Source of the DNA: Microbacterium memoriense
GTDB taxonomy: Bacteria > Actinomycetota > Actinomycetes > Actinomycetales > Microbacteriaceae
Direction: 5' to 3'
Assembly: GCF_025398275.1 (NCBI RefSeq)
Contig: NZ_JAODOR010000002.1
Coordinates: 62,001 to 126,000, forward strand
Length of the DNA: 64,000 bases
Both the position numbers and the translations under genes were made by a program. The notes below the pieces were generated by a model that worked only from the letters and a program-made list of their open reading frames with translations, had not been told where the DNA came from and did no database searches. Shown here one piece after another: positions 43,646 through 61,573 of the stretch. Positions within the stretch are counted from its first letter, which is position 1. Each line of letters begins with the position of its first letter.

Positions 43646-45310
43646 TCATCTCGAGGGGACGCCGTTGTACCGATTGCTGAGGAGCAGCCAGTCTGCGACC
43701 ACCTCTGGAGAGATCGCCACGTCGGCAACGAAGACGCCCTGCGCTCCACCGCTGAGCCATTCTTCGATGCTGTTTAGTTGTGCGAGCGTGCGGATCTTCG
43801 CGCCGGATCCGCCCATGGCTCGCGCAACTGCGGCGAAGTCGACTTCGCTGAAGCGCATCGAGCTCGTGTCGAGTCCGCGGGCGCCGTACTGATGCACTTC
43901 CATTCCGAAGGCAGCATCGTTCATGACGATCACCAGCGCTGAGGGCACCTCCCGGACCAGTGTGTCCAGTTCACTCAACTCCATGAGGAAGCCACCGTCT
44001 CCAGTTACGAGCACCGGCAGTCGATCGGTGCGCGCTGCCGCAACGCCGATAAGTGAACCTGCCCCGAGTCCGATGCAGTGAAGCCCGAGGCCAGGAAGGA
44101 GCATGGCCTCTGGATCCGGAGCGCTCAGGTGACGAGGCGCCCACCCCATGAAGTGTCCATTGTCTTGGGTGATTGTCCGCTCCGCGGGGAGGATGTCCTC
44201 GAGCTGTTCCATCACCGCGCGCGGGTCAAGTCGACCGTCGGGCGCGAGTTCCTCGAAGGCCTCGGGATCCCGTTGAGGCAGGATCGCGCCAGCTCTCCAT
44301 CCAGCCTGGTTCCCGGCGGCGAGACTGTTCAGCACGGAGACAGCGAACGCTCGCGCATCCGCCCGATGAAAGGCGTTGACACGTGGGTGCGTCGCACCGG
44401 AGAGGGTGTCGACTTGAATGACGTGTGCACCATCGTCGATCAGCGAGTTGTAGCGCATCTGCCAGAGATTCATGCTCGCGCCGACGACGAGGACGACGTC
44501 TGCCTGTTTGATCAGGTCCGCGGCTTCCGGCGTCGAGAAGCCACCGGCGATCCCGAGATCCCACGGTGAGTCGACAACCCCGTGTGCCATGAGCGAGCTG
44601 ACGGACAGTGCCCCTACCCGGTCGCCGATTTCTCGCAGTGCTTCTCCTGCCTGAGCGATCACGGCGCCGCGGCCCGCGAGGATCAGCGGCCGATGCGCTC
44701 TCAGCAAGATCCCCGCAACCTCCGCGGCATCCTCGCGCGACACCGGTTCAGCGACCGCGAGTTCATGGGTGCGCAGCACGTCGTCGGAAGAGAGAGTGGG
44801 GACTGAACCGTTCGGAGCTGCGGGTGCGTCAACGAGGTCGTACGGAAGCGCAACGATGACCGGAACGCGGTCGCGTCGGGCGATCTCGTAGGCGAGCTCA
44901 GTCTGCGCGGCGGCGTCGTGGGTGCCGACGACGAGCGTCCGCACGTACACGGCGGCCGCAGCTGCGAGCTGGTCGATGTCAATCGCGCGAGGGCCGCTCG
45001 TCGGCGCGGTGCCCACGATGACCACCGCCGGGACGCGGGTCAGCCGAGCTTCCGCCAGCGAGGTCAGCAGGTTGGTGAAACCTGCACCGTACGTGGCGGA
45101 GGCTGCCGCGACACCGCCGCCGGCGAGCGCAAAGCTATGCGCTGCAGCAACGGTCGCGGTCTCGTGTCGGACGTCGACCACACGATGCCCGCGAGAGGTC
45201 AGGCTTGCGACGAAGTGCGCGTTGCCGTTGCCCATCAGGCTGAAGACGACCGGGCTGTGGCGGGCGACAACGTCAGCGACGACATCCGCGACGGTCTTGG
45301 GGCGTTCCAT
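43646..45310 (-). CDS. Thiamine-pyrophosphate-dependent enzyme, 2-oxo-acid decarboxylase/acetolactate-synthase type
   Basis: A 554-residue member of the three-domain TPP family. The N-terminal Pyr domain has RHETATVAAAHSFALAGGG, with the glutamate that activates the cofactor. The central domain is Rossmann-like. The C-terminal PP domain has VTGDGGFLMELSELDTLVREVPSALVIVMND, the GDG-x-(about 27)-N TPP/Mg2+ motif. It probably decarboxylates a 2-oxo acid to an aldehyde (or condenses it), acting after the FMN oxidase encoded just upstream; the substrate is unknown. ATG 45310 has AGGAGC upstream. It is the last gene of the operon. Confidence 0.86.
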   Translation of the reverse strand: MERPKTVADVVADVVARHSPVVFSLMGNGNAHFVASLTSRGHRVVDVRHETATVAAAHSFALAGGGVAAASATYGAGFTNLLTSLAEARLTRVPAVVIVGTAPTSGPRAIDIDQLAAAAAVYVRTLVVGTHDAAAQTELAYEIARRDRVPVIVALPYDLVDAPAAPNGSVPTLSSDDVLRTHELAVAEPVSREDAAEVAGILLRAHRPLILAGRGAVIAQAGEALREIGDRVGALSVSSLMAHGVVDSPWDLGIAGGFSTPEAADLIKQADVVLVVGASMNLWQMRYNSLIDDGAHVIQVDTLSGATHPRVNAFHRADARAFAVSVLNSLAAGNQAGWRAGAILPQRDPEAFEELAPDGRLDPRAVMEQLEDILPAERTITQDNGHFMGWAPRHLSAPDPEAMLLPGLGLHCIGLGAGSLIGVAAARTDRLPVLVTGDGGFLMELSELDTLVREVPSALVIVMNDAAFGMEVHQYGARGLDTSSMRFSEVDFAAVARAMGGSGAKIRTLAQLNSIEEWLSGGAQGVFVADVAISPEVVADWLLLSNRYNGVPSR

Positions 45311-45372
45311 CGAGGTGCTCCTAGGGCTGGCAGCGAGGGATCGTGGCTGCCCTGCGAGGGTGGTTCCGGAAG

Positions 45373-46593
45373 TCATGTGTTCTCGCTCCCGCGTTGGGCG
45401 ATGAGGCGCGGTCCGCGATCTCGGAGCGCGGCGATGGACGGTGCACCCACGAGCGCCATCGTGCGAGCCAGTTCGGCGTGGAGGATCGCCAGCACGCGTG
45501 CGACGCCGTCACCTCCCCCGGCAGCAAGTCCCCAGATGTAAGGACGGCCGATGAAGGCGGCATCCGCGCCGAGCGCGAGTGCGAACGCGACGTCTCCGCC
45601 GTTCCGAACGCCGGAATCGACGACCACAAGGGCATCTCGACCCAGTGCCGCGCGGACGGGTCCGGTGAGTTCGATAGGCGCGATCACCCTATCGAGCTGG
45701 CGACCGCCGTGGTTGGAGAGGTGAACGCCGTCGACACCGAGTTCCTGTGCGCGCACGGCGTCGTGGGGCCCGATTGGTCCTTTCAAGAGCAAAGTCCGCG
45801 GCCAGAGTTTCCGGATCCGGGCGATCTCATCCCAGTCGAGTGCGGCGTCGAACCCGGCGGTGATGTCGGCGATCGAGCCGCCCGGTAGAGTTCCCGATCG
45901 GACACTCTTCTTCACCTGTACGAAGTCAAATGACTCGTTCGCCAGCATGCTCGACCAGTAGCGCGGCTTGACGGCGATTCCTCCGAGGGTGGCAAGCGTC
46001 ATTCGCGGCGGAATGATGAGTCCGTTGCGGCGATCCCGTACGCGATTACCCGCGACCGCCGTGTCGACCGCGACTTCGAGGACCGGTGAGCCGGCCGCGT
46101 CCGCCCGACGGATCAGGTCGTTCGTGACGTCGCGGTCGCGCATCGTGTACAGCTGTGACCAGGGCGCCGTGCTCGCGGCTGCCACGTCCTCGATCGTTGT
46201 GGTCGCCACCGTCGACAGCACGTACGGAACTCCGGCTGCGGCGGCAGCTTCCGCGACCCCGATTTCTCCGGCGGGGTGGATCATCCGTGTGTACCCGGTG
46301 GGCGCCAGTCCGATCGGCATCGCCCACTTGTCCCCCGCGAGCGTCTTCGACGTGTCGACGACGTCAGCAGGGACGAGCGAGTCGGGCTGCCAGCGAAGCC
46401 GGTTGAATGCCGCCCGATTCGCCTCCAGGGTGGTCTCGGTGTCGGCACCTCCGTCGACATAGTCGGAGATGCCGCGCGGCAGCGCTCGCAATGCCGCGCG
46501 ATGGACGTCACCGATCGTGTGGAGATGTGAGTACGCCCCCGTCGCCCGTCCTCTCGTCAGTCCGATGAATTGGAATGCCTCACTCAGCTTCAT
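45373..46593 (-). CDS. FMN-dependent alpha-hydroxy-acid oxidase/dehydrogenase
   Basis: A 406-residue protein of the lactate-oxidase/mandelate-dehydrogenase family, which oxidises 2-hydroxy acids to 2-oxo acids. It has RGISDYVDGGADTETTLEANR (N-terminal signature), SQLYTMRDRDVT (active-site Tyr), LLLKGP (FMN-binding Lys), and GVHLSNHGGRQLD with the catalytic His and Arg (S-N-H-G-G-R-Q). Directly upstream of the TPP enzyme (62 bases) and directly downstream of the HisD-like gene (4 bases), it fits the middle of a cascade. The electron acceptor (O2 or the quinone pool) is unknown. Confidence 0.9.
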   Translation of the reverse strand: MKLSEAFQFIGLTRGRATGAYSHLHTIGDVHRAALRALPRGISDYVDGGADTETTLEANRAAFNRLRWQPDSLVPADVVDTSKTLAGDKWAMPIGLAPTGYTRMIHPAGEIGVAEAAAAAGVPYVLSTVATTTIEDVAAASTAPWSQLYTMRDRDVTNDLIRRADAAGSPVLEVAVDTAVAGNRVRDRRNGLIIPPRMTLATLGGIAVKPRYWSSMLANESFDFVQVKKSVRSGTLPGGSIADITAGFDAALDWDEIARIRKLWPRTLLLKGPIGPHDAVRAQELGVDGVHLSNHGGRQLDRVIAPIELTGPVRAALGRDALVVVDSGVRNGGDVAFALALGADAAFIGRPYIWGLAAGGGDGVARVLAILHAELARTMALVGAPSIAALRDRGPRLIAQRGSENT

Positions 46594-46597
46594 CGGT

Positions 46598-47923
46598 TCA
46601 CACCCGGATGGCGACGGAGGCACCGTGTGCGGGGAATCCCTCGTGCTCAGCGAAGGCGAGGACGGTGGGCGCGAGGGCGCGCAGTCCGTCCGGCGTGGCT
46701 CGTGCGACTGCGCGCTTCTTGCGGAAGGTGTGTGCGGTGATGCCGCTCGACACTTTCGCATACCCACTCGTCGGCAGAGCCGCGGGACATCCGAGGACGA
46801 AGTTCGCCATGGAAACCGTGGTGTATTGACCGACAAGGATCTCGGCGGCATCGGTGAGGAGGTCGAGTGTGCTCTCCTCGTCCCGGACGACAAGCTGCAT
46901 GTGCTCGGGGGCGTAGACGTTGGCGACCTCTGCGCCTTCTTCGATGGAGTCAACGAGGACCGCGCCGCCATTGCGCATCGCCAGCCGGGCGTATTCGTCT
47001 CGCGGTGCCGGCAGCTCGGCAATCTGCACAGCAAGCTCGATCTGCACGGCTGCGAGCAGTTCTTCGGACGGCGTGACGAGGACGCTCGACGAGTCCGGCC
47101 CGTGTTCCGCTTCGTTGAGCAGGTCCGCTGCGAGCAACCGCGGGTCAGCGGAATCGTCCGCCAGGATCAGGCTCTCGCTGGGCCCGAGAAGCATGTTGCT
47201 GACCACTCCGAACCGCTGCACCTCGATTTGGGCGACGGCCACGGGCGGACTACCCGGACCGACCACCTTCCGCACGGCGGGGACACTCTGGGTGCCGAAG
47301 GCGAGCGCGCCGATTCCGGCCGGGCCGTTGGCTCGGAACACGTCGGTGATCCCGAGTTCGCGCGCGACCACGAGCACCGCGGGGTCGACCTTGCCGCCTG
47401 TTCCCGGGACCGGTGGGGTAACGACGGCAATACGCTGAACACCAGCGACCACGGCCGGCGTTCCCAGTTGGACGAGCACAGACGGGAATGAGCCCTTGCC
47501 TGCGGGTACGAACAGGCCGACGCTCTCGATGGGGCTCGTGCGCTCACCGACCATGACTCCGGGCGCGGTTTCAAAGCTCCAGTCCGCGTCCTCGGCGATG
47601 AGCTGCTCGTTGTAGCGACGGACGAAGGCGATGGATTCGCGGATCGCGGCCAGCATTTCCGGGTTGATCGAGTCCGCTGCGGCGTCGAACTCTTCGTCGG
47701 AGACGCGGATGTCAGAGCGGTCCACTTCGACTTTGTCGAATTTGGCGAGGGCGCGGATGAGGGCGTCGTCCCCGTTGTCTCGTACGTCCTCCAGGATCTC
47801 GAGGACGGATTCCCTCAGTTCGGGGTCGAAAACGCGACCGATACCCCGCGTTGTGAGATCGTCGCGCTCAGCGTCGGACATGTCTGCCCAACGGCCGCGT
47901 TCGCGAATGGATTGTGAGGTCAT
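46598..47923 (-). CDS. HisD-like (histidinol-dehydrogenase family) NAD-dependent dehydrogenase
   Basis: A 441-residue protein with the HisD fold. It retains VYAPEHMQL (catalytic Glu-His pair) and a C-terminal EHEGFPAH, and has VGLFVPAGKGSFPS and GPAGIGALAFG near the cofactor site. Two zinc-ligand positions differ from histidine-biosynthetic HisD: EAEHGPD instead of QAEH, and ANFVLGC in place of the usual GDY segment. It sits with an SDR, a zinc ADH and oxidases, not with his genes, so it is probably a catabolic homologue such as HpsN, which takes an alcohol to an acid. ATG 47923 is used; 47941 is an alternative. Confidence 0.85.
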   Translation of the reverse strand: MTSQSIRERGRWADMSDAERDDLTTRGIGRVFDPELRESVLEILEDVRDNGDDALIRALAKFDKVEVDRSDIRVSDEEFDAAADSINPEMLAAIRESIAFVRRYNEQLIAEDADWSFETAPGVMVGERTSPIESVGLFVPAGKGSFPSVLVQLGTPAVVAGVQRIAVVTPPVPGTGGKVDPAVLVVARELGITDVFRANGPAGIGALAFGTQSVPAVRKVVGPGSPPVAVAQIEVQRFGVVSNMLLGPSESLILADDSADPRLLAADLLNEAEHGPDSSSVLVTPSEELLAAVQIELAVQIAELPAPRDEYARLAMRNGGAVLVDSIEEGAEVANVYAPEHMQLVVRDEESTLDLLTDAAEILVGQYTTVSMANFVLGCPAALPTSGYAKVSSGITAHTFRKKRAVARATPDGLRALAPTVLAFAEHEGFPAHGASVAIRV

Positions 47924-47944
47924 GATGGTGCTCGCTCTCATGTG

Positions 47945-48667
47945 TCAGATGTTGCGTCCGCCGTCGATTGTTATCGCGGCGCCGGTGAGGAAGGGGGCTT
48001 GCGGTCCGAGGAGGAACTCGAGGAGCGCTCCGATCTCATCGAGCTGCCCGAAGCGTCCTGCGGGGATGTGCTGCAGTAGCACTCTCGATGTGATCGGATC
48101 GCTGAGCCAGTCGCTCGTCATCCTCGATGGGAAGTACCCGGGGCAGACGGATGTCACCGAGATCCCGTCGGCGCTCCACTCGAGAGCAAGTGTCTTCGCC
48201 AGCGCGAGGGCCGCCGCCTTGCTGGCGTTGTAGTCGGCGAATCCTGCCTCGGGGCGGATCGCATTCACGGACGCATTGATCACCAGCGTGCCGGGCCGGG
48301 TGAGATGACGGTAAGCAGCCTGCGCCACCACGAGCGGACCCACCGCGTTGACTTCCATGACCTGTCGGTAGCGCTCGGGGTCAAGGTCTTGAGCGGCTTT
48401 GCCTTCGCCGTCGATGCCAGCGTTGGCGAACACCCCGTCGAGACCACCGAAGATGGCGGCAGCGGTATCGAAAGCCGTCGCTACGCTCCTCGGGTCCGTG
48501 ACGTCGGCGACGGCGCCCAGCTCGGAAACTCCCGCCTCAAGAGCGTCGCCGACGGTCGCCGCGCTGGTTCCGGTGATGAGTACCCGGTGTCCACGCTCCG
48601 AAAGGTACGCAGCAACAGCCCGACCGATGCCGCTCGTACCACCGGTGATGAGGTAGCGCCGAGTCAT
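47945..48667 (-). CDS. Short-chain dehydrogenase/reductase
   Basis: A 240-residue classical SDR: nucleotide site TGGTSGIGRAVA, NAG motif FANAGIDGEG, catalytic Ser in INASVNAIRP and YNASK (Tyr-Lys), and C-terminal FLLGPQAPFLTGAAITIDGG. It interconverts an alcohol and a ketone with NAD(P). It overlaps the zinc alcohol dehydrogenase gene by ATGA and precedes the HisD-like gene by 21 bases, so it likely acts on the same substrate. Confidence 0.92.
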   Translation of the reverse strand: MTRRYLITGGTSGIGRAVAAYLSERGHRVLITGTSAATVGDALEAGVSELGAVADVTDPRSVATAFDTAAAIFGGLDGVFANAGIDGEGKAAQDLDPERYRQVMEVNAVGPLVVAQAAYRHLTRPGTLVINASVNAIRPEAGFADYNASKAAALALAKTLALEWSADGISVTSVCPGYFPSRMTSDWLSDPITSRVLLQHIPAGRFGQLDEIGALLEFLLGPQAPFLTGAAITIDGGRNI

Positions 48668-49644
48668 GCGAGGGTCACCACGATCTTGCCGAGCGTAGGA
48701 GTGGGCTCAGCGAGGCGCTTCGCCAGCTCGTCGAGGACGATCCTGTCACTGACGACGTCGGCGAAGGCGGACGGCGACGCTGCCAAGACGGCGAGCGCAG
48801 TCGGGATACCGTCATCGTCGAAGCCGATGGAAGGCGCAATGGTGACGCACTTCTCGACGAGCTCCTGAGCGGAGACATCGATCGCGTGGTCACCCAGCGC
48901 CACCACGACGACCGTTCCGCCTCGGCGGACGGCGGTGAAGGCGGTGGCCACCGACCCCGGATATCCGGCCGCGTCGATAACTGCATCGACGCGTTCCCTG
49001 CCTGTGGAAGCCGAGATCGCCCCGCGCGCCGCGGCGGCGGCCAGCCGGCCGGGGTCGGATTCGGCGACGATGACGTCGATGCCGCGGCTTCGGAGCACGA
49101 GGTGGCTGAGCGCTCCGATCGGTCCGTACCCGAGGATCAACACCCGCGCGGCATCGCGAGGCAGCCGGAGGAGCGCACTCAGGACGACCGCCAACGGCTC
49201 GGCGAGGACTGCGACCTCCATCGGGAGGATGGCCGCATCGAACGGATAGACGCCGGCCGCTGGCACAACCACCTCTTCGGCGAAGCCCCCCGGTCGAGAC
49301 TCCCCGAGCCACGTCAATCGAGCACACAGCTGTGGAGCGACGGCACAGTCAGCGCAGGCGCGGCAGGGTATGCGGGAGTCGATGGCCACAGCCGTGCCCA
49401 CCGCGAGGTCCGGACTGCGGCTCTCGGTGATCGTTCCCACCACCTCATGGCCCAGCGTGGCAGGCCAGTACTCGATCCACGCGCCCGTCTGCACAGCGTG
49501 AATGTCGGACCCGCACACACCTGCCGCGGCGACTCCCACCCGCACCTCGTTCTCCCCGATGTCGGGTGCCGAGATCTCACCGACATCCGTCATGAGGTCT
49601 CGATGCACGCGAAGAGCGCGGACGGTGTGTGTCATGGCGTCCAT
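48664..49644 (-). CDS. Zinc-dependent alcohol dehydrogenase (MDR family)
   Basis: A 326-residue MDR alcohol dehydrogenase. Catalytic zinc ligands are in AGVCGSDIHAV and LGHEVVG; the four structural-zinc cysteines are in CRACADCAVAPQLC. The Rossmann fold has VLILGYGPIGALSHLVL. It is the promoter-proximal gene of a five-gene operon running to the TPP enzyme. Sequence resembles polyol or threonine-type dehydrogenases; the substrate is unknown. ATG 49635 is an in-frame alternative start. Confidence 0.9.
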   Translation of the reverse strand: MDAMTHTVRALRVHRDLMTDVGEISAPDIGENEVRVGVAAAGVCGSDIHAVQTGAWIEYWPATLGHEVVGTITESRSPDLAVGTAVAIDSRIPCRACADCAVAPQLCARLTWLGESRPGGFAEEVVVPAAGVYPFDAAILPMEVAVLAEPLAVVLSALLRLPRDAARVLILGYGPIGALSHLVLRSRGIDVIVAESDPGRLAAAAARGAISASTGRERVDAVIDAAGYPGSVATAFTAVRRGGTVVVVALGDHAIDVSAQELVEKCVTIAPSIGFDDDGIPTALAVLAASPSAFADVVSDRIVLDELAKRLAEPTPTLGKIVVTLA

Positions 49645-49741: not shown

Positions 49742-49795
49742 AAGGGAAGCGCCTCGTCCTCGAGTGCCGATAGCCGCGCCATTAGCGTGAATCGC

Positions 49796-51136
49796 ATGGA
49801 TCAGACAGCATCGACCGCCAGTCAGCGACCGCTCGCGCGGGAGGCTCGCGATCTCTATCACTCAGGTCACGAGTCGCAAGCACAGGCGGCGCTCGTCCTC
49901 CTCATCGGCGAGGTCACGGGTGTCGGAGCGTCGCGGGTGACGATCAATCGGGACGTGTACAGCCTGAATTCACTCAACGGGACCACGGAGCTCAACGATG
50001 GCCGCCGATTCTTCTTCAAGTTCCACGCCGAAGAAGGTGAGGACGAGACGATCCAGGAGTACTACAACGCCGAGCTCCTCGACGAGGCAGGCTACCCCGT
50101 CGACGTCCCGGTGTTCGCGTGCGGCGAGCCCGGTAGGCAGATTCTGATCTACCACCTCAGAAGCGACGACAGGCTGTCCGACGTGTGTCGTTCCGCGGAG
50201 GCAGACGGATTTTTCCCCGACTCCATCACGCGGACGGAGGTGTTGTCCGCTCAACGCGAGCTCGACGTCCTCAGCGCGACACGCATGATCGCAACGCTGC
50301 ACGAAGCGAGTATCACGGAGCTCGCCGGCGAACCGGTTCATCGGTTGTTCCGTGATCGCCTCCTGGACGTCGACGGCATCCGCGAGCCCGGCGAAGGAGG
50401 GCGTGTGGCGCGCTTCTATGCCGCGAAGGAGCACGCGCTCGGAGATGTCGTACTTTCGTGGGAGGCGATTCGGGATGCCACATGGGTCATCAACGGCGTC
50501 GAATACGAGGAGACGATCGGCGCCATCCTCGCCGACGCCGCAGACGCGCTGTCGCCTGGCCACCTCGGGCCGGCCGCGGTCGTGGCTCACGGCGATGCAC
50601 ACAATGCCAACGTGTGGTTCGAACGGGAGGCTTCGGGCGAAGCCAGACTCGTGCAGTTCGACCCTGCACTCGCCGGGAAGCACATGCCCGCTCTCCTCGC
50701 GGAAGTGAAGGCAACGTTCCACAACATCTTCGCGCACCCCTTCTGGCTGTACGAGCCTGCGGTCGCCTCAGATCGGTACACCGCGACCGTGAGCTTTCGG
50801 AATGGCGTCCTCGAGGTCGACCACGACTTTCAGCTGAGCGATATGCGGGCCGACTTCCTCACTTCCAAGGTCGCCCATGTCTGGCGACCGCTCCTGTCTG
50901 AGATGGCCGCACGTGACATCCTCCCGGTGGACTGGGAACGGATTATGCGAAGGGCGTTGTTCTGTTGCCCGACGCTCGTGCATGAGTTGCGTGCGGGTGG
51001 ACCCACGGGTCATACACCCACCTCGGCCGCGATCGGGTGGTCTATGGCTGTGGCCGCCGGCACCGCTTCCGTCGCCGGGGAAGACGTATTCTCGCGGTTC
51101 TTCACGGAGATCACCCCGACGACGGTGCGCCACTGA
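49796..51136 (+). CDS. Phosphotransferase of the aminoglycoside/choline-kinase superfamily
   Basis: A 446-residue protein kinase-like fold enzyme. It has a GRRFFFKFHAE motif (ATP-binding Lys), then VVAHGDAHNANVWFE, the catalytic loop (H-G-D-x-x-x-x-N), and VQFDPALAG (metal Asp of the DFG-equivalent). Such proteins phosphorylate small-molecule alcohols. The divergent position from the dehydrogenase operon suggests a substrate in the same pathway, perhaps an alcohol trapped as a phosphate. ATG 49796 chosen over GTG 49787. Confidence 0.82.
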   Translation: MDQTASTASQRPLAREARDLYHSGHESQAQAALVLLIGEVTGVGASRVTINRDVYSLNSLNGTTELNDGRRFFFKFHAEEGEDETIQEYYNAELLDEAGYPVDVPVFACGEPGRQILIYHLRSDDRLSDVCRSAEADGFFPDSITRTEVLSAQRELDVLSATRMIATLHEASITELAGEPVHRLFRDRLLDVDGIREPGEGGRVARFYAAKEHALGDVVLSWEAIRDATWVINGVEYEETIGAILADAADALSPGHLGPAAVVAHGDAHNANVWFEREASGEARLVQFDPALAGKHMPALLAEVKATFHNIFAHPFWLYEPAVASDRYTATVSFRNGVLEVDHDFQLSDMRADFLTSKVAHVWRPLLSEMAARDILPVDWERIMRRALFCCPTLVHELRAGGPTGHTPTSAAIGWSMAVAAGTASVAGEDVFSRFFTEITPTTVRH

Positions 51137-51163: not shown

Positions 51164-51973
51164 TCAGCCTGCGAGTGCGGCGCGGGACGATCCCGCGGTG
51201 CCACCAAGACGCCGGGTGAGTCGGGCTGCGGCATCATGGACGGCGCGTCCGATGCGTGCCCGTGCCGCCTCGTCCGATTCTCGACCGGCGAGAAATGAGA
51301 CAGAGAAGCTCGCGACGGGCATCGCGTGCTTGTCGATCACCGCCGCAGCGATGCACGCAACTCCGTCCGTGGTGTGACCGTCCTCGATACTCCAGCCGCG
51401 TGCGCGGTCGGCCGCGAGCAGCTCCTTCAGTTCACGTATGGAGTGAGGTCCACGGCCCGTGCGATCGATGAAAACGTTGTGCGTCCCGAAGGTCGCGGTC
51501 ACCTGCTGGGGCGAGAGCATCGCGAGCATCGACCGCCCGGTCGCAGTGAGCTGAGCGGGAAGACGGACGCCGATATCGGTGACGAGAGTCGCTGCGTGGG
51601 GCGGCTGCTCCTTGAGGAGGTAGAGCACTTCGTGTCCGTACAGCATGCCGAAGTGCGCGGTGTGCCGCACTGCCGACGAGAGCTCTCTCAGAAGAGGTCG
51701 GGCGAGGTGCTCGAGAGGCTGGTGCCGGAGGTAGGCGGTACCGAGCTCGAAGACGCCGCTGGCGAGCGTGTAGCCCTGCGCTTCGGGAATGTGCAGAACG
51801 AGCCCTTCGTCCGCGAGGACCTGGAGGATTTGGTACGTCGAACTGCGCGGCAGATCAAGTCGTCGTGCGATCGCCGCGGCGCCGACGGGCTCGGTCCTCC
51901 CCGCAAGGAGGCGCAAGATCGCCACGCCGTGTCGCAACGCGGGCATTCGTGGGCCGAGAGAGACGTCCGTCAT
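51164..51973 (-). CDS. IclR-family transcriptional regulator
   Basis: A 269-residue IclR protein: winged helix (HGVAILRLLAGRTEPVGAAAIARRLDLPRSSTYQILQVLADEGLV) and effector domain with VTDIGVRLPAQLTATGRSMLAML. It resembles the IclR regulator of the hut region at 2252-3019 in overall layout. Its ATG overlaps the GMC oxidoreductase stop by ATGA, so it is co-transcribed with that gene and the ABC transporter, and it probably controls this operon and perhaps the divergent ones. Confidence 0.9.
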   Translation of the reverse strand: MTDVSLGPRMPALRHGVAILRLLAGRTEPVGAAAIARRLDLPRSSTYQILQVLADEGLVLHIPEAQGYTLASGVFELGTAYLRHQPLEHLARPLLRELSSAVRHTAHFGMLYGHEVLYLLKEQPPHAATLVTDIGVRLPAQLTATGRSMLAMLSPQQVTATFGTHNVFIDRTGRGPHSIRELKELLAADRARGWSIEDGHTTDGVACIAAAVIDKHAMPVASFSVSFLAGRESDEAARARIGRAVHDAAARLTRRLGGTAGSSRAALAG

Positions 51974-53538
51974 TGCGGTATCCCGACCACATCCCCGTGG
52001 CGCACGGTCGGCCCGGCGGGCGCAGCGTCCCGGATGAGGTCGACTGCTCTCTCGGCGACTGTCATGACCAGCCCGACGGGGTTCAGCGCGGAGAGGGACG
52101 GCAAGACGGAAGCATCGACAACGCGGAGACCTGATGCCCCTCGCACCCGGAGTTCGCTGTCGAGGACAGCGAGTGGATCGCCATCGGCCCCCATTCGACA
52201 CGTGCACGAGACGTGGTACACGGTCTGGTGGGTAGCCCGCAGGACTTCCGAGAGCTCTTTGTCGGACTGGACATGCGCACCGGGGAACACCTCGCGCACG
52301 AGGTGGGAGGCGAACGGTTCTTGCTCGGCGACGCGTCGGGCGAGTCGGATGCCTTCGATAAGCATCCGTTCGTCGCGTCCGGTCGCATCCGTGAACGCGC
52401 GATAGTCGATTGATGGAGCCGCATCCGGCTCTGACGAGGTGATCCACACTCTGCCGCGGCTGCGAGGCTTTGCCACGTTGGGTGCGAAAGACACGTGGTT
52501 GTCGGGGATCTCCGCGCCGTAGCGTTCTGCGTGAACAGCCCATGAGTGCAAGGGGATGTGCGTGGAGATGTCCGGGACCGCACTCGCCTCGTCCACGCGC
52601 AGCGCGTATCCCGCGTCCCAGCCCGTTGCGCACACGTCGCTTCGTTCGCCCCGCGCCTCCCACACGATGAGACCCTCCGCATGATCCTGGAGATTCTCCC
52701 CGACGCCGGGGAGCTCGATCAGCACGTCGATGCCCGCGGCGTCCAGAACGGGCTTCGGACCGATGCCCGAGCGCATGAGAAGCGCGGGACTGTCGATGGC
52801 GCCGCAGCTGATGATCACCTCACGCCGGGCGTGCAGTGTGCGTTCTTCCCCCGCCACGAGGGTTCTCACGCCCACCGCGCGCCACGCGTCCAGGATCACC
52901 GTGTCCACGAGCGCCTCGAGGACGATTGTGAGATTCGCGCGCTCGACGCCGTGCAGGTACGCACGGGAGGTCGACGACCGCAGGTTGGTCGCAGGGTCGT
53001 ACCCGATCTCGAAGAATCCGGCGCCCTCGGTGAATTCCGTGTCGTTCCACGTTGCTCGTGGAGGCAGCCCGAGAGCGGATGCCGCTGCGGCGACGGCATC
53101 CGCGACATACGGATTCTGATCGTTTGCGTCCACCGGAGCGATCGGGGCCGCGATGCGGTCGTAGTAAGGGGATATTGTTTCGTACGCCCAGCCCGCGACG
53201 CCCATCGCGGCCCATTCGTCGAGGTCACCGCGCAGCGGTCGCCAGCTGATCATGGTGTTCGCAGTCGAGCAGCCGCCGAGGATCCGGAGCCGAGATTGCC
53301 GGATAAAGGAATTTCCGCGTTCCTGCTCGACGCTGCGGTAGTCCCGGTCGTACTCGCCCTCCAGCATCTCCGCCCACCGCCGGATGGATCCGGCCCGTTC
53401 TTCGTGCTCGTCACTAGGACCGGCCTCGACCAGGCACACGGTGACGGTGGGGTCCTCGCTCAATCGGGCGGCGACAATGCAACCGGCGGTGCCACCGCCG
53501 ACCACGATGTAGTCGAAGGTGTCGCCGGCGTCAGACAT
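51970..53538 (-). CDS. GMC-family FAD oxidoreductase (choline-dehydrogenase-like)
   Basis: A 522-residue flavoenzyme. FAD site YIVVGGGTAGCIVAARLSED (residues about 9-28), LRILGGCSTANTMISWRP (GMC signature 1 region), REVIISCGAIDSPALLMRSGIGP (signature 2), and HVSCTCRMG with the active-site His and the C-terminal SALNPVGLVMTVAERAVDLI. It oxidises an alcohol, with choline or other polar alcohols as family precedents. It overlaps the ABC ATPase gene by 8 bases and the IclR gene by 4, so the imported substrate is probably its alcohol. Confidence 0.92.
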   Translation of the reverse strand: MSDAGDTFDYIVVGGGTAGCIVAARLSEDPTVTVCLVEAGPSDEHEERAGSIRRWAEMLEGEYDRDYRSVEQERGNSFIRQSRLRILGGCSTANTMISWRPLRGDLDEWAAMGVAGWAYETISPYYDRIAAPIAPVDANDQNPYVADAVAAAASALGLPPRATWNDTEFTEGAGFFEIGYDPATNLRSSTSRAYLHGVERANLTIVLEALVDTVILDAWRAVGVRTLVAGEERTLHARREVIISCGAIDSPALLMRSGIGPKPVLDAAGIDVLIELPGVGENLQDHAEGLIVWEARGERSDVCATGWDAGYALRVDEASAVPDISTHIPLHSWAVHAERYGAEIPDNHVSFAPNVAKPRSRGRVWITSSEPDAAPSIDYRAFTDATGRDERMLIEGIRLARRVAEQEPFASHLVREVFPGAHVQSDKELSEVLRATHQTVYHVSCTCRMGADGDPLAVLDSELRVRGASGLRVVDASVLPSLSALNPVGLVMTVAERAVDLIRDAAPAGPTVRHGDVVGIPQ

Positions 53539-54298
53539 GGTGGATGAGTCCGAGAATCTCGCTGTAGTAGTGGTGGAACTCCGGGCTGCCGATGATCTCC
53601 GGGTCGCGAGGGCGTGGAAGCTCGATGTCGAACTCCGCACGGACCTTGCCCGGTCGGGGTGTCATCGCCACGACGCGGTCCGAGAGGAATACGGCCTCTT
53701 CGATATCGTGCGTGATGAGCATGACCGTCATCCGGTTGCGCTCCCACACCGTCGTCAGCAGTTCCTGCATCGTTCGGCGCGTGAGCGCGTCGAGTGCGCC
53801 GAACGGCTCGTCCATGAGCAGCACTTCGGGGCCGTAGGCCAGGGAGCGCGCGAGCGCGACGCGCTGCTGCATGCCACCCGACAACTGTGCCGGGAAGGAG
53901 TCTTCGAAGCCTGCGAGTCCCACCTGAGAGAGCACATCCCTCGCGCGATCGGTTCGTTCGCGCCGCGACATGTCGGCTTCCCCTCGCAGGGCGAAGATGA
54001 CGTTGTCGATGGCGGACAGCCAGGGAAGCAGAGTCGCCGATTGGAAAACGACTCCGCGGTCACGGCCTGGTCCCCGGATAGCGGTTCCGTTGATAGAAGT
54101 TTCGCCATCGGTCGGCGCTTCGAGGCCGGCGATGATCGAGAGCAACGTGCTCTTGCCACATCCAGATGCTCCGACCACGGAGACGAACTCGCGGTCACCG
54201 AGGGTGAGCGTGACGTCACTGAGAGCGTGGACTTCTCCGAAGCTCTTGTTGACACTGTCGACGAAGACCTTCGGCTGTGCGATCGTGACTGACGACAT
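53531..54298 (-). CDS. NitT/TauT-type ABC transporter ATP-binding protein
   Basis: A 255-residue ATPase of the nitrate/taurine/sulfonate (TauB/SsuB) type. Walker A is VVGASGCGKSTLL, Q-loop VFQSATLLPWLSAIDNV (typical NitT/TauT), signature LSGGMQQR, Walker B VLLMDEPFGALDALTR, H-loop LITHDIEEA. ATG overlaps the permease stop (ATGA). Confidence 0.95.
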   Translation of the reverse strand: MSSVTIAQPKVFVDSVNKSFGEVHALSDVTLTLGDREFVSVVGASGCGKSTLLSIIAGLEAPTDGETSINGTAIRGPGRDRGVVFQSATLLPWLSAIDNVIFALRGEADMSRRERTDRARDVLSQVGLAGFEDSFPAQLSGGMQQRVALARSLAYGPEVLLMDEPFGALDALTRRTMQELLTTVWERNRMTVMLITHDIEEAVFLSDRVVAMTPRPGKVRAEFDIELPRPRDPEIIGSPEFHHYYSEILGLIHHV

Positions 54299-55173
54299 CA
54301 GGAACGTCCCTTCAAGTAACGGAAGAAGTTGCGGCCGAGCGCTCGCATGATCTGGTCGAAGATCAACCCGAGCAGCCCGAGCACGATCACGTAGCCGATG
54401 ATGAGGTCCGTTTCGAGAAAGCGCTGGGCCTGGGTGATGCGGTAGCCCATGCCCGAGGTGGCGGCGACGAGCTCCGCGACGACAAGCCAGGTCCAGGCCC
54501 ATCCGAGGCTGATGCGCAGCGCATCCCAGATGCGTGGCAGCGCCGCGGGAAAGATGATCCGGACCAGGATCTGGGTGCGCGTGAGACCGAGGGTCGCGCC
54601 GAGGTTTCGATACGAGACCGGCACGCGACGCACGGCATCTGAGAACAACAGAACCTGTTGGAAGAACGTGCCGAGGAAGATGATGAGGAACTTCTGCGTG
54701 TCGTCGGTACCGACCCAGAGGATGGTCAAAGGGACGAACGCGACGACCGGCATATACCGGATGAAGTCGATGATGGGCTCGACGGCCGCTTCGACACGGG
54801 CGAGCGAACCGCACAGGACGCCGAGCGGCACGGCCAGCACCGTGCTGGCGAGGAACCCGACCATGACCCGGTACGTGCTCACACCGATATCCGCCCAGAG
54901 CTCGCCATTGGCGGCTTGCTCTCCCAACTTCTGGACCACGGCGATCGGAGAGGGGAGGAACAGGGGATTGACCAGCTCCGACACCGTGATGGCGGTCCAG
55001 ACGGCCAGGAGTGCGATGAATCCAAGCACCGAAATCGTCACGTACTGACGCCGCGTGAGCGGTGCGCCGGCGATGGGGCGGGCGGCACCCGCCGCGCGCT
55101 TGCTGCGCGCGGCGGGTGCTGTGGCTGGTGAGATCGTCATCGGATCAGGCTTTCGCGTCGGGGCGATGGTCAC
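54298..55173 (-). CDS. NitT/TauT-type ABC transporter permease
   Basis: A 291-residue permease with six membrane segments and the SsuC/TauC pattern: LPSPIAVVQKLGE, GVSTYRVMVGFLASTVLAVPLGVLCG, PVVAFVPLTILWVGTDDTQKFLIIFLGTFF, LGATLGLTRTQILVRIIFPAALPRIWDALRISLGWAWTWLVVAEL (EAA loop). GTG 55173 has AGGAGG ten bases upstream and overlaps the binding-protein stop. It forms the channel for an organic anion or amine. Confidence 0.94.
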   Translation of the reverse strand: MTIAPTRKPDPMTISPATAPAARSKRAAGAARPIAGAPLTRRQYVTISVLGFIALLAVWTAITVSELVNPLFLPSPIAVVQKLGEQAANGELWADIGVSTYRVMVGFLASTVLAVPLGVLCGSLARVEAAVEPIIDFIRYMPVVAFVPLTILWVGTDDTQKFLIIFLGTFFQQVLLFSDAVRRVPVSYRNLGATLGLTRTQILVRIIFPAALPRIWDALRISLGWAWTWLVVAELVAATSGMGYRITQAQRFLETDLIIGYVIVLGLLGLIFDQIMRALGRNFFRYLKGRS

Positions 55174-56186
55174 GGAGCCTCCTCGACGAGCCTGGTGTCG
55201 ACGAGGCTCGTCAGGTCAGCACCGCCCTTGAGGAGCCCGATCTGAGTTGCGACGTCCTCCACTGACGGCAGGACGGTCTGCAGGTAATCACCAGGGAACA
55301 CCGTCTTGTTGTCCTCGAGGGAGTAGAACTCCACCCCGTCGAAGGCGGTTTCGAGGGCCTCGACGTCGCTGCCGACGTTCTCCGCGATGATCCCACGCGC
55401 CTCGTCTGTGTCGGAACGGTAGAACTCGACCGCGGGACCCCAGGCGTTGACGACCTTCTGGACGATGTCGGGGTGCTCGTCGAGGTAGTCGTTGTCGACG
55501 ATCAGCACGTCGCTGATGAGGCCGGCGTTTTCTGCCGCCGTATAGATGATCTCGAAGCCGTCCGTTGCTTTGCGTGCTTCTGAGATGTACGGCTCGTATG
55601 TCACGGCAGCCGGAACGCTTCCGCCGATCAGCGCGGTCGCCGCTTCTGACGGGTCCATGGGCACCGGAGTGATGTCGTCGAGGCTCAGGCCTGCTTCCCC
55701 GAGGGCGTAGCCGAGCAGCAGGTTGCTGACCGACCCCTCCTCGAATGCGACACGTTGACCCGCAAGGTCAGCCACATCCGTGATCGATCCGTCGGTGAGG
55801 ATCGCGTCTGCCGTGAGCGAGGCGTCGAGCAGAAGCACAATCGAGATGTCGAGTCCCTGCTCGACGAGCTGCAGTGCCGAGTGGCTCGCGACGTTGGCGA
55901 GTTGCACACGGTCCGACGCGAAGGCCGCACTCATGTCGGCGTCATTGGTGAAGTTGGTGATGGTCACATCCACGTCTTCGTCACCGAAGTAGCCCTTTTC
56001 CTGAGCGATGTACCACGGGCCGTAGCCGAGCCAGGGCTGAATACCCATCGTGACGGAATCGGAGCCGGCGGCGGCGCCGCTGGCGTCGCCACCCGCCGTG
56101 CCGGTGCAAGCAGTGAGGGCAAACAGCGAGACGGCGGTGACGCCGGCGAGTGCTGCTGTGCGCAGGGTGCGAGTGGGACGGAGCAT
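55170..56186 (-). CDS. NitT/TauT-type substrate-binding lipoprotein
   Basis: A 338-residue lipoprotein with signal peptide and lipobox LTAC near residue 26. TMGIQPWLGYGPWYIAQEKGYFGDEDVDVTITNF is the classical NMT1/TauA-like binding fold start, and GGSVPAAVTYEPYISEARK follows. It delivers the ligand to the downstream permease-ATPase pair. Relatives bind sulfonates, nitrate, pyrimidine precursors or aromatic acids; specificity cannot be read. Confidence 0.92.
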   Translation of the reverse strand: MLRPTRTLRTAALAGVTAVSLFALTACTGTAGGDASGAAAGSDSVTMGIQPWLGYGPWYIAQEKGYFGDEDVDVTITNFTNDADMSAAFASDRVQLANVASHSALQLVEQGLDISIVLLLDASLTADAILTDGSITDVADLAGQRVAFEEGSVSNLLLGYALGEAGLSLDDITPVPMDPSEAATALIGGSVPAAVTYEPYISEARKATDGFEIIYTAAENAGLISDVLIVDNDYLDEHPDIVQKVVNAWGPAVEFYRSDTDEARGIIAENVGSDVEALETAFDGVEFYSLEDNKTVFPGDYLQTVLPSVEDVATQIGLLKGGADLTSLVDTRLVEEAP

Positions 56187-56299
56187 GTGAGGTCCTTCCG
56201 AGGACTGGTCGGGTGGTTTCGTCTAGCTTCCGGACCCGACTCGCACACAGCAAATAGGGATGAGCGAGACACTACATCAATATTTTTGAAGTAAATCAT

Positions 56300-56313
56300 C
56301 GGCAATATCGCCG
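56300..56313. promoter_or_regulatory. CGGC-AATATC-GCCG palindrome in the divergent promoter
   Basis: CGGCAATATCGCCG is an inverted repeat with CGGC/GCCG arms, lying between the binding-protein gene and the divergent amidohydrolase gene. The minus strand reads CGGCGATATTGCCG, sharing GATATT with motifs at 49690-49741 and near 58973. Operator function is inferred. Confidence 0.45.
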
Positions 56314-56377
56314 TAACACATAAGAAACACAGCGCGCGGAGGCTGAACTACCAACCGTAGGAGAGTCGAGGACGCGA

Positions 56378-58012
56378 ATGATGAGCACCCTGTACACCAA
56401 TGGGCACCTCTATCTGGGCGGCGGCGAGTTCGCGCGGGGTCACGTACTGACCCGCGGCGAGCGGATCGAGAGAGTCGTGCTCGGCGAGGCACCCGACCTC
56501 GCAGCCGACGAGGTTATCGACCTTCGAAATGGCACGCTGCTTCCCGGGTTTCAGGATGCGCACGTCCATCCACTCCTCGCCGGCTTGCAGCTCATCGGTA
56601 TCGACCTGGCGCCCGTCCACGATCGAGGTCAGTACCTACAACGCATCGCGGACTTCGCTCGCGCGAACCCGACCGCCGAGGCGCTGACCGGCGGCGGGTG
56701 GTTCGGCGATGTGTTCCCCGGAGGCTTCCCGACGGCCAGCGAGCTCGATACGGTCGTCCCCGATCGACCGGTCGTGCTGTTCAGCCACGACGCGCACGGT
56801 GTGTGGGTGAACAGCGCAGCCCTCGTAGCGGCCGGGATCGATTCACGAACGGAAGACCCAGCTGACGGCCGCATCCTTCGCGACGAGAACGGCGAGCCGA
56901 CGGGGATGTTGCTCGAAAGCGCCGTCGGACTGGTCAGCGCACTCACGCCGGATCCCGATTCGAACGTCCTCGCCGAGGCGCTCCTCGCCGCCCAGCAGCG
57001 GCTCCATTCAGTGGGCATCACCGCCTGGCAGGACGCCGCCGTCGGCGTATCCGACATCGGCCCCAACGCGTTGCCCGTCTACGAGGATCTGGACCGTCGG
57101 GGCCTCCTGACGGCGCGTGTTGTCCTGGCCCTATGGTGGGACCGGACCCGCGGAATCGAGCAGATCGGCGACTTCGAGGTCACCCGCGATCGACTTGAAG
57201 GAAGTCGCCGACTGGATGCGGGCACGGTCAAAGTGATGGTGGACGGCATGGTCGAGAACCGTACCGCGGCGATGCTCGCTCCCTTCGAAGGCTTCGGCGA
57301 CGATCGCGGCGTCACTTTCGTCCCGGACAACCGACTCGAAGAACTGAGCGTCGCGTTGGATGCCGCGGGTTTCCAGATCCACTATCACGCGGTCGGTGAC
57401 GCCGCCGTGCGCAGTTGTCTGGACGCGCTGGAAGCGGTCCGCCAGCACAACGGCGTGACCACCCTTCGCCATCACATCGCGCACCTCGACATCGTCGACG
57501 AGGTAGACAGCCCCCGCTTCGGAGCGCTTGATGTGAGCGCCAACGTCACCGCACTGTGGGCGCGGATGGACGAAGAGATCGAGACCCGAAAACTGCCGCT
57601 TCTGGGAGCAGAACGCGCACGGCGACACTTCCCGTTCGCCGACATCGCCCGGCAGGGCGGACGCATCGTCGGCGGTAGCGACTGGCCTGTGACCGACCCG
57701 AACCCGCTATGGTCCGTACGCGCCGCGGTGACTCGCACAGGTGTGCCCGAGGATCCGCACGCGATCGGAGCCCAGGTCTTCACCAACCCCCTGCTCGCGG
57801 AGCAGTCGCTCGAACTAGGTCAGGCTCTCGATGCCTACTTGGCGAATGCGGCGCACGTGAACCGACTTGACTCTCAGACGGGTGCTCTGCGGGAGGGAAT
57901 GCTCGCCGACCTGGTCTGGATCGACCGCAACATCGGAGAGATCAGCGCGCTGGGAAGCGCACGCGTGCGGCGAACGGTCGTCGGCGGCACGCTGGTTTAC
58001 GACGCAGACTGA
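56378..58012 (+). CDS. YtcJ-type metal-dependent amidohydrolase
   Basis: A 544-residue amidohydrolase-superfamily enzyme. Metal ligands: LPGFQDAHVHPLLAG (H-x-H), a carbamylated-Lys/His region ending in IHYHAVGDAA and LRHHIAHLDIV, and GGSDWPVTDPNPL (catalytic Asp). YtcJ-like enzymes hydrolyse amide or imide bonds. Shine-Dalgarno GAGGACGCGA precedes ATG 56378. It is divergent from the ABC importer and tail to tail with the LysR gene, overlapping it by 16 bases. Confidence 0.9.
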   Translation: MMSTLYTNGHLYLGGGEFARGHVLTRGERIERVVLGEAPDLAADEVIDLRNGTLLPGFQDAHVHPLLAGLQLIGIDLAPVHDRGQYLQRIADFARANPTAEALTGGGWFGDVFPGGFPTASELDTVVPDRPVVLFSHDAHGVWVNSAALVAAGIDSRTEDPADGRILRDENGEPTGMLLESAVGLVSALTPDPDSNVLAEALLAAQQRLHSVGITAWQDAAVGVSDIGPNALPVYEDLDRRGLLTARVVLALWWDRTRGIEQIGDFEVTRDRLEGSRRLDAGTVKVMVDGMVENRTAAMLAPFEGFGDDRGVTFVPDNRLEELSVALDAAGFQIHYHAVGDAAVRSCLDALEAVRQHNGVTTLRHHIAHLDIVDEVDSPRFGALDVSANVTALWARMDEEIETRKLPLLGAERARRHFPFADIARQGGRIVGGSDWPVTDPNPLWSVRAAVTRTGVPEDPHAIGAQVFTNPLLAEQSLELGQALDAYLANAAHVNRLDSQTGALREGMLADLVWIDRNIGEISALGSARVRRTVVGGTLVYDAD

Positions 58013-58947: not shown

Positions 58948-59064
58948 GGATGCCTCGTATTTCGAATTTGTTGCGCTGATATTGCGGAGGTTTCTAGATC
59001 TGCATTTTAGATATATATCACCGTCTTCAGCTATTTGCTTGCGCCCGCGCGGTTTCCGAGACTC
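58948..59064. promoter_or_regulatory. Divergent LysR/monooxygenase promoter with LysR box
   Basis: ATCTGCATTTTAGAT (58998-59012) contains the LysR motif T-N11-A in an inverted repeat. GATATATATC (59010-59019) is a perfect palindrome overlapping it. CTGATATTGCGGA near 58977 differs by one base from the CTGATATTTCGGA at the 49.7 kb operator. The short region is very AT-rich compared with its neighbours. Confidence 0.6.
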
Positions 59065-61570: not shown

Positions 61571-61573
61571 TCC

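What the first reader, a model, noticed from the sequence alone, without database searches (positions are those of the whole stretch)
43646..49644. Operon that could oxidise a diol to an aldehyde through a 2-oxo acid
Gene order is zinc ADH, SDR, HisD-like dehydrogenase, FMN alpha-hydroxy-acid oxidase, TPP enzyme. A HisD homologue (HpsN) with two further dehydrogenases (HpsO, HpsP) is known for oxidising 2,3-dihydroxypropane-1-sulfonate to sulfolactate. Adding a 2-hydroxy-acid oxidase and a TPP decarboxylase would carry the product to a 2-oxo acid and then an aldehyde plus CO2. With a NitT/TauT-type importer and an aldehyde dehydrogenase nearby, this would be a complete and unusual route. The substrate could equally be a non-sulfonated diol; no sulfite-handling gene is visible.
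Basis: inference. Interest (0 to 1): 0.65.

Follow-up and report, generated by a model that had tools for sequence, protein, structure and literature searches.

The report
Operon feeding imidazole alcohols into catabolism
The five-gene operon is real and most likely breaks down a histidine-like imidazole alcohol rather than a sulfonated diol, using a non-standard histidinol-dehydrogenase class and two alternative exits; no biochemistry has been done.

Summary
In detail: ADH–SDR–HisD-like–FMN 2-hydroxy-acid oxidase–TPP enzyme form one tight operon (gaps −4, 3, 4, −4 bp). The proposed chemistry (alcohol → 2-hydroxy acid → 2-oxo acid → aldehyde) stays plausible; the proposed substrates do not fit. 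The HisD-like enzyme lacks the HpsN motif, and its nearest relatives sit in histidine-utilisation (hut) clusters: of 13 long loci with ADH, SDR, HisD and FMN, 10 hold hut genes and 11 a HisC-like aminotransferase; 0 of 20 control loci hold hut genes. I read the pathway as imidazole-side-chain catabolism ending in imidazolepyruvate. Relatives would transaminate this to histidine; the window would decarboxylate it. Close TPP orthologues occur in 4 of 298 family genomes; all four carry the cassette and three lack histidine ammonia-lyase. The nearby importer and aldehyde dehydrogenase belong to a second conserved module, with an amine oxidase gene just outside the window, possibly for histamine/imidazoleacetate, that could take up the aldehyde. 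Histidinol itself remains a serious rival substrate. Substrate and every catalytic step are inferred. New variant of a known kind.

The parts
48664..49644 (-). zinc alcohol dehydrogenase (Tdh/IdnD-like), first gene of the operon
   Evidence: PF08240/PF00107; below all NCBIfam cut-offs shown; ATG start, 4-bp overlap with the next gene
47945..48667 (-). short-chain dehydrogenase
   Evidence: PF13561 162 bits
46598..47941 (-). HisD-like dehydrogenase of a non-standard metal-ligand class (E. coli Q259->E277, D360->N380, H367->A387; E326/H327, H262, E414, H419 kept)
   Evidence: PF00815 400 bits, TIGR00069 382.8 vs cut-off 243.8; residues by alignment to 1k75 and to 80 loci
45373..46593 (-). FMN-dependent 2-hydroxy-acid oxidase/dehydrogenase; proposed to make the 2-oxo acid
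   Evidence: PF01070 383 bits; closest solved: L-lactate oxidase, 4-hydroxymandelate oxidase, mandelate dehydrogenase
43646..45376 (-). TPP enzyme; proposed 2-oxo-acid (imidazolepyruvate) decarboxylase
   Evidence: three TPP domains; below the cut-off of each of the 25 NCBIfam models shown; orthologues (69-72% id) in only 3 other genomes of the 298 searched, all with the cassette
49787..51136 (+). divergent APH/choline-kinase-fold small-molecule kinase, 142 bp from the ADH
   Evidence: no Pfam or NCBIfam family at E<=0.001; HGD.H..N and FDPA invariant in 20 sequences; model pLDDT 89.4; best VIA-align match PsiK 8zic Z 20.7, rmsd 4.5, 320 aligned; best Foldseek match a corramycin phosphotransferase, E 2e-5
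51164..51982 (-). IclR-family regulator of the cassette type
   Evidence: PF01614; 59-69% id to IclR genes beside the cassette in L021-L024
51970..53553 (-). GMC oxidoreductase (module B)
   Evidence: PF00732/PF05199; 66-72% id homologues in module B loci L134, L135, L160, L161, L176
53531..56186 (-). SsuA/TauABC-type ABC importer: ATPase, permease, binding protein (module B)
   Evidence: 69-79% id homologues beside module B in L160, L161, L176 but 39-64% in the Microbacteriaceae cassette loci L021, L024, L029, L048
56378..58012 (+). amidohydrolase family 3 (module B)
   Evidence: PF07969; 61-64% id in L160, L161, L176
57997..58851 (-). LysR regulator (module B; upstream end of the gene not settled)
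   Evidence: PF03466/PF00126; genes that I read as LysR from their sequence stand next to FMO in L135, L160, L168, L172
59035..63998 (+). module B: FMO (59035-60471, start codon uncertain), RidA (from about 60465), DUF1028 (60905-61570), M20 hydrolase (61574-62758), ALDH (62742 to beyond the window end)
   Evidence: the same five genes in this order in L134, L135, L160, L161, L168, L172 and L176
2..3019 (.). end of the hut cluster in the same window: urocanase (about 2-643, -, runs off the window), histidine ammonia-lyase (637-2265, -), IclR-like gene (2216-3019, +, read from its sequence)
   Evidence: PF00221 E 1.6e-179 at G000:C12:62766-64160; PF01175 at G000:C12:61609-62232; ORFs

Best explanation
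The operon is the window lineage's version of an actinobacterial catabolic cassette for an imidazole compound with an alcohol side chain (candidates: 3-(imidazol-4-yl)propane-1,2-diol, imidazole acetol/glycerol, histidinol). ADH and SDR adjust the C2 hydroxyl (oxidise one enantiomer to the ketone and reduce it to the other; this role of HpsO/HpsP is recalled). The HisD-like enzyme oxidises the terminal alcohol to the acid with 2 NAD+, giving imidazole-lactate. The FMN enzyme oxidises this to imidazolepyruvate. In many relatives a HisC-like aminotransferase then makes histidine, which enters the Hut pathway. In the window and three other genomes the TPP enzyme takes the 2-oxo acid to imidazoleacetaldehyde plus CO2, which the neighbouring module B (ALDH, FMO, hydrolases, copper amine oxidase) could carry on via imidazoleacetate. 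SHOWN: gene order, families, conservation, hut linkage, residue changes, distribution of TPP and ammonia-lyase. INFERRED: substrate, each reaction, and the fate of the aldehyde. My probability that an imidazole compound is the substrate is about 0.8; for the exact linear route about 0.4.
For: Conserved unit with hut genes: 12 of 23 close loci of 20 kb or more hold hutH/U/I; of 13 with ADH+SDR+FMN, 10 hold hut genes and 11 the aminotransferase; 0 of 20 FMO control loci (10.5-18 kb) hold hut genes. The window's closest HisD relative, L021, has HutI-HutF-AllC-HutU-HutD-like-aminotransferase-HutH directly beside the cassette. The one cassette aminotransferase compared with solved structures (L025) matches a phenylalanine aminotransferase (4r2n, 216 bits) better than any HisC (115 bits), which favours an aromatic 2-oxo acid. 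Own genome has a second, canonical HisD. TPP orthologues at 69-72% id are in 4 of 298 family genomes, the next hit is 50%; among 34 distinct carriers of the HisD subfamily, 3 of the 6 without ammonia-lyase and 1 of the 28 with it have close TPP (Fisher p 0.012). TPP overlaps the FMN gene here, follows the cassette IclR in L012, and ends the FMO-RidA-DUF1028-M20-ALDH-GMC operon in L134 and L135.
Against: No substrate or activity is shown. Three of the six carriers without ammonia-lyase are MAGs without TPP; the TPP/ammonia-lyase pattern rests on few, related genomes (within nine Microbacteriaceae p 0.048). G000 has both ammonia-lyase and TPP. G116 lacks ammonia-lyase (E<=1e-100) but keeps a urocanase. 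Nine cassette genomes with the FMO gene have no close TPP, including L029. The kinase beside the ADH has no place in the route. HisD joins hut genes without ADH, SDR or FMN in L058 (with a HisB-like gene), L067 and L071, which fits histidinol better than a diol. The aminotransferase of L031 scores higher with the HisC model (250 bits, cut-off 276.55) than with PRK03321 (231), and PRK03321 is itself named histidinol-phosphate transaminase. The TPP enzyme resembles carboligases (acetolactate synthase, 2-hydroxyacyl-CoA lyase) more than decarboxylases by score.
Confidence: 0.5

Rival explanations
1. The HisD-like enzyme is a true catabolic histidinol dehydrogenase (histidinol to histidine to Hut). 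ADH, SDR, FMN enzyme and aminotransferase serve related compounds such as imidazole-lactate in parallel, not in one line.
For: The Glu/Asn/Ala residue signature occurs in HisD in or beside complete his gene sets: L096 and L060 (HisZ, G, A, F, IE, B) and, with Ser for Ala, archaeal L077/L078. HisD with hut genes but without ADH/SDR/FMN is seen in L058, L067, L071. Histidine is the product that hutH needs. A HisB homologue lies near the HisD-like gene in 14 of 53 close loci, and some of these may be biosynthetic.
Against: It leaves the tightly coupled ADH-SDR-FMN genes without a role in the same flux. In G072 and G134, which lack ammonia-lyase and urocanase, histidine could not enter Hut, yet the cassette is kept. 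His367 is Ala in 53 of 53 close loci, but L060 and L096 share this, so the point is weak; in six alphaproteobacterial or related loci near hisA (L081-L083, L086, L087, L093) it is His in five and Asn in one.
Confidence: 0.3
2. One reading: a sulfonated or simple aliphatic diol (DHPS, propanediol, glycerol derivative) oxidised HpsN-style to a 2-oxo acid and decarboxylated.
For: Same trio of HisD-like, SDR and ADH as HpsN/O/P; importer of the sulfonate/taurine class nearby.
Against: HpsN motif His126 replaced by Phe; TPP scores 106 vs cut-off 676 for sulfoacetaldehyde acetyltransferase; hut context in relatives; the importer goes with module B. CpHpsN is reported inactive on L-histidinol (passages of PMC11382572), so a HisD-fold enzyme need not serve both classes.
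Confidence: 0.07
3. The TPP enzyme does not belong to the FMN enzyme's pathway: it is a module B carboligase or decarboxylase that became joined to the operon by rearrangement.
For: In L134 and L135 it is the last gene of FMO-RidA-DUF1028-M20-ALDH-GMC-TPP; its closest solved relatives include carboligases.
Against: 26 of the 30 family genomes with the FMO gene have no close TPP orthologue, and no TPP homowas found in the 19 loci inspected from FMO genomes without the cassette (one of the 19, L178, showed the FMO gene alone). Among the genomes searched, close TPP is found only where the cassette is also present; in two it is adjacent to cassette genes.
Confidence: 0.25

Closest known systems
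HpsN/HpsO/HpsP DHPS catabolism (Cupriavidus pinatubonensis)
   Same: HisD-fold dehydrogenase encoded with two further dehydrogenases; catalytic Glu-His pair kept
   Different: no His126 motif, different metal ligands, hut context in relatives, FMN oxidase and TPP enzyme added
Histidinol dehydrogenase HisD (biosynthetic)
   Same: PF00815/TIGR00069 above cut-off; Glu326, His327, His262, Glu414, His419 kept
   Different: Gln259 to Glu, Asp360 to Asn, His367 to Ala; in a catabolic-looking operon; the genome has a separate canonical HisD
Hut pathway (histidine ammonia-lyase, urocanase, imidazolonepropionase)
   Same: many cassette relatives lie in hut clusters and would deliver histidine to it
   Different: the window cassette is 41 kb from hutH and carries TPP where relatives have the aminotransferase
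Histamine/imidazoleacetate catabolism (recalled, no paper seen)
   Same: amine oxidase, aldehyde dehydrogenase, flavin monooxygenase and N-C hydrolases as in module B; aspartate ammonia-lyase follows M20 in L167
   Different: the gene families of module B were not tied to a characterised pathway here; nearest solved amine oxidase is a phenylethylamine oxidase

Membership tests
Biosynthetic histidinol dehydrogenase (HisD) | TIGR00069/PF00815 score above curated cut-off | tested here: met
   382.8 vs 243.8 bits; 400 vs 27 bits
Biosynthetic histidinol dehydrogenase (HisD) | catalytic Glu326-His327 | tested here: met
   E346-H347; 80 of 80 related loci
Biosynthetic histidinol dehydrogenase (HisD) | Zn ligands Gln259, His262, Asp360, His419 | tested here: not met
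   Glu, His, Asn, His; Glu in 80 of 80 loci, Asn in 78 of 80 (2 Ser). The same change occurs in a HisD lying in a his operon (L096), so it does not exclude histidinol
Biosynthetic histidinol dehydrogenase (HisD) | oxidises L-histidinol | not testable with these tools
   needs assay
HpsN (DHPS 3-dehydrogenase) | GRY(A/S)H motif with His126 (motif from PMC11382572, passages read) | tested here: not met
   GKGSF at 148-152; Phe or Tyr at the His position in all 79 of 80 related loci that cover it
HpsN (DHPS 3-dehydrogenase) | Asp352 and Gln248 ligands | tested here: not met
   Asn380 and Glu277, taking the HpsN positions as equal to E. coli D360 and Q259
HpsN (DHPS 3-dehydrogenase) | neighbouring HpsO-type and HpsP-type dehydrogenases | tested here: inconclusive
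   an SDR and an ADH are present; not compared with HpsO/HpsP sequences
Sulfoacetaldehyde acetyltransferase (Xsc) | TIGR03457 above cut-off | tested here: not met
   TPP enzyme 106 vs 676 bits
FMN-dependent 2-hydroxy-acid oxidase | PF01070 and SNHGGRQLD active-site stretch (motif recalled) | tested here: met
   383 bits; LSNHGGRQLD present
2-oxo-acid decarboxylase (TPP) | above an NCBIfam decarboxylase cut-off | tested here: not met
   106.3 vs 500 for 5-guanidino-2-oxopentanoate decarboxylase; none of the 25 models shown (of 53) was reached
2-oxo-acid decarboxylase (TPP) | three TPP domains with catalytic Glu and GDG (motifs recalled) | tested here: met
   PF02776, PF00205, PF02775; RHE and TGDGG present. 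Shared with carboligases, so not decisive

The most novel reading that the evidence does not exclude
An undescribed catabolic pathway that reuses the logic of late histidine biosynthesis to eat imidazole-glycerol-type compounds: HisB-like dehydratase (present in five loci mostly of Thermoleophilia/Solirubrobacterales), small-molecule kinase, ADH/SDR, a HisD class with swapped metal ligands, FMN oxidase, then two interchangeable exits, an aminotransferase into histidine/Hut or a TPP decarboxylase into an imidazoleacetaldehyde/imidazoleacetate module.
Probability: 0.3. Interest if true: 0.75.

Novelty: new variant of a known kind. Interest (0 to 1): 0.55.

Why it matters
If right, many proteins annotated as histidinol dehydrogenase in Actinobacteria are catabolic, not biosynthetic, so automated histidine-biosynthesis calls there can mislead. 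It names a concrete candidate substrate class, makes the function of an unnamed kinase family and of an FMN/TPP pair testable, and gives a natural case in which two downstream exits seem to replace each other.

Tried and rejected
DHPS/propanediol substrates: rejected on motif and context (above). The importer and ALDH as parts of this operon's pathway: rejected because their close relatives (69-79% id for the importer in L160, L161, L176; 69-72% for the ALDH in L134, L135, L160, L161, L176) lie with FMO-RidA-DUF1028-M20 in genomes with and without the cassette. 'TPP occurs in every genome with both modules': true in the family sample, dropped after one search showed nine further cassette genomes with FMO and no close TPP. 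Structure of the TPP enzyme: the model with 3 sequences had mean pLDDT 48 and was not used. Kinase: a profile search of the PDB found nothing at E<=1; the fold matches (PsiK, methylthioribose kinase, corramycin phosphotransferase) give no substrate, and families absent from those lists are not excluded. Paper searches in the held library: in the rows listed, no title or abstract start described a HisD-Hut catabolic cluster; most matching papers beyond the listed rows were not seen. Passages were read in PMC11382572 and PMC9413887, no whole paper. The plasmid search found 381 records, all with best identity under 60%, and was not pursued.

These 34 carry the HisD subfamily; not all have the full ADH-SDR-FMN unit (e.g. 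G064, L057, L059). The handle list held 30 of the 80 loci. Neighbours rest on BLAST to named query proteins and on a simple gene caller of my own; hut, HutD-like, LysR and NCS1 names of neighbour genes are mostly my reading of the sequence, except those scanned and the ammonia-lyase and urocanase searches.
Full report
OBSERVATION. A kinase-fold gene (49787-51136) runs divergently 142 bp away and an IclR regulator lies at 51164-51982. The genome (2.76 Mb, 26 contigs) holds two HisD genes; the other, on contig C21, has the canonical residues, so the window copy is not needed to explain histidine synthesis (inference).

THE HISD-LIKE ENZYME. It passes the HisD models. Aligned to E. coli HisD (1k75) it keeps Glu326-His327, His262, Glu414 and His419, but has Glu for Gln259, Asn for Asp360 and Ala for His367. 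In 80 loci from a scan of GTDB genomes (206 pattern matches, 110 relatives, best 80 kept) the Glu is in 80 of 80 and the Asn in 78 of 80 (2 Ser); Ala at 367 is in 53 of 53 close loci and 14 of 27 distant ones. His419 reads as a gap in 4 truncated rows. HpsN is told from HisD by a GRY(A/S)H motif whose His binds the sulfonate (PMC11382572, passages read); here the stretch is GKGSF. So it is neither HpsN nor a standard HisD. The same Glu/Asn/Ala signature occurs in HisD genes in or beside biosynthetic his gene sets (L096, L060; archaeal L077/L078 with Ser), so it does not by itself exclude histidinol. A HisB homologue lies near the HisD-like gene in 14 of the 53 close loci; of these, L044-L047, L049, L052 and L066 show neither hut genes nor the cassette and may be biosynthetic.

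NEIGHBOURHOODS. Of 53 close loci (L021-L072, L075), 20 hold an ADH, 27 an SDR, 24 an FMN and 17 a kinase homologue, and 17 hold hutH/U/I; many contigs are short. Of the 23 that are 20 kb or longer, 12 hold hut genes and 13 hold ADH, SDR and FMN; 10 of these 13 also hold hut genes and 11 of 13 a HisC-like aminotransferase. Of the 27 distant loci 2 hold hut genes and none the full unit. Examples: L021, nearest to the window in the tree, HutI-HutF-AllC-HutU-HutD-like-aminotransferase-HutH then ADH-SDR-HisD-FMN-IclR-kinase-ABC; L025-L028 (Mycolicibacterium/Mycobacterium, Streptomyces) IclR-ADH-SDR-HisD-NCS1 permease-FMN-HutH-aminotransferase; L031 (Acidimicrobiaceae) ABC-IclR-ADH-aminotransferase-HisD-kinase-FMN-SDR-HutU-HutH-HutI. 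As a control, none of 20 loci (10.5-18 kb) around an FMO gene from the same family held a hut gene. The aminotransferase of L025 matches a solved phenylalanine aminotransferase (4r2n) at 216 bits and the best HisC at 115, and falls just below the PRK03321 cut-off (363.6 vs 374), a model named histidinol-phosphate transaminase. L021's scores 334.7 there; L031's scores better with TIGR01141 hisC (250, cut-off 276.55) than with PRK03321 (231). For the L025/L021 type an aromatic 2-oxo acid such as imidazolepyruvate is the likelier substrate (inference); for L031 this is open.

THE TPP ENZYME. Orthologues at 69-72% identity occur in 4 of 298 family genomes (G000, G072, G116, G134); the other 71 hits are at most 50% identical. 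All four carry the cassette. In 34 distinct genomes with this HisD subfamily, close TPP is in 3 of 6 without histidine ammonia-lyase and 1 of 28 with it (Fisher p 0.012; within nine Microbacteriaceae p 0.048). The three ammonia-lyase-negative genomes without TPP are MAGs. Two TPP genomes (G072, G134) also lack urocanase; G116 has one. The window genome has ammonia-lyase and urocanase, but 41 kb away, and no PF00155 aminotransferase on that contig. In one search, G000, G072 and G134 have one aminotransferase each at 43-45% identity to the cassette type, not beside the cassette; I did not settle by a tree whether these are orthologues. My reading is that TPP replaces the aminotransferase/Hut exit. 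The numbers are small and the genomes related.

MODULE B. In L134 and L135 TPP ends an operon FMO-RidA-DUF1028-M20-ALDH-GMC-TPP. FMO orthologues are in 30 of 298 family genomes, 26 of them without close TPP; in 19 loci inspected from such genomes without the cassette no TPP homologue was found. In L160, L161 and L176 the module lies beside an ABC importer and an amidohydrolase that match the window's importer at 69-79% and amidohydrolase at 61-64%, against 39-64% for the importer in Microbacteriaceae cassette loci. So the window's importer, GMC, amidohydrolase and ALDH belong to module B. A copper amine oxidase gene lies just outside the window behind the ALDH (G000:C12:126257-128197; PF01179 521 bits, nearest solved phenylethylamine oxidase); amine oxidase homologues are in 6 of 23 FMO loci compared, the own genome not counted. 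An aspartate ammonia-lyase gene (684 vs 510 bits for PRK12273, but 603 vs 681 for TIGR00839) directly follows M20 in L167, and a 63% homologue lies beside M20 in L171: 2 of 23 loci. Aspartate as end product is what imidazoleacetate degradation would give (recalled), so I suggest, at about 0.35, that module B is histamine/imidazoleacetate catabolism and that TPP feeds imidazoleacetaldehyde into it. Against this, nine cassette genomes with FMO lack close TPP, all with ammonia-lyase.

OTHER MEMBERS. In L042, L053, L058, L061 and L062 a HisB-like gene stands in the same run as HisD and hut genes; in L061 ADH, HisB-like and HutH overlap by 4 bases. This suggests that the compound may have an imidazole-glycerol-type side chain in those lineages. 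The kinase has no Pfam, NCBIfam or PDB sequence relative at the limits used; its model (pLDDT 89.4) is closest to 4-hydroxytryptamine kinase PsiK (Z 20.7, 320 residues, rmsd 4.5). Its step is unexplained.

VERDICT. The absence of a published account is claimed only for the rows listed by the searches in the held library.

Noticed in passing
window 49787-51136; L074, L079, L085, L089, L099: Small-molecule kinase family without any Pfam/NCBIfam hit, found near HisD-like genes in Actinobacteria and Alphaproteobacteria; in L085 it stands with HisD, a gene that I read as HAD-like, and HisC (TIGR01141 above cut-off).
   Followed up: partly
L042, L053, L058, L061, L062: HisB-like gene inside operons with HisD-like and hut genes (HHTVED-type motif, recalled, reads MHVVMED, MHVVTED or SHVVCED).
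   Followed up: partly
window 51970-63998 and G000:C12:126257-128197: Separate conserved module (ABC importer, GMC, amidohydrolase, FMO, RidA, DUF1028, M20, ALDH, copper amine oxidase) of unknown function.
   Followed up: partly
L044, L050, L066: Contigs titled Bifidobacterium breve MAG group with Solirubrobacterales in the HisD tree; the record titles are probably wrong.
   Followed up: no
L042, L058, L061, L062, L067, L071: The hutH homologue in these clusters, where no aminotransferase was seen, is only 42-50% identical to the query; it may be a different ammonia-lyase subclass.
   Followed up: no
L064 (Actinoplanes sandaracinus): HisD-like, HisC-like, a TPP enzyme (about 30% id) and a second HisD-like match lie together.
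   Followed up: no
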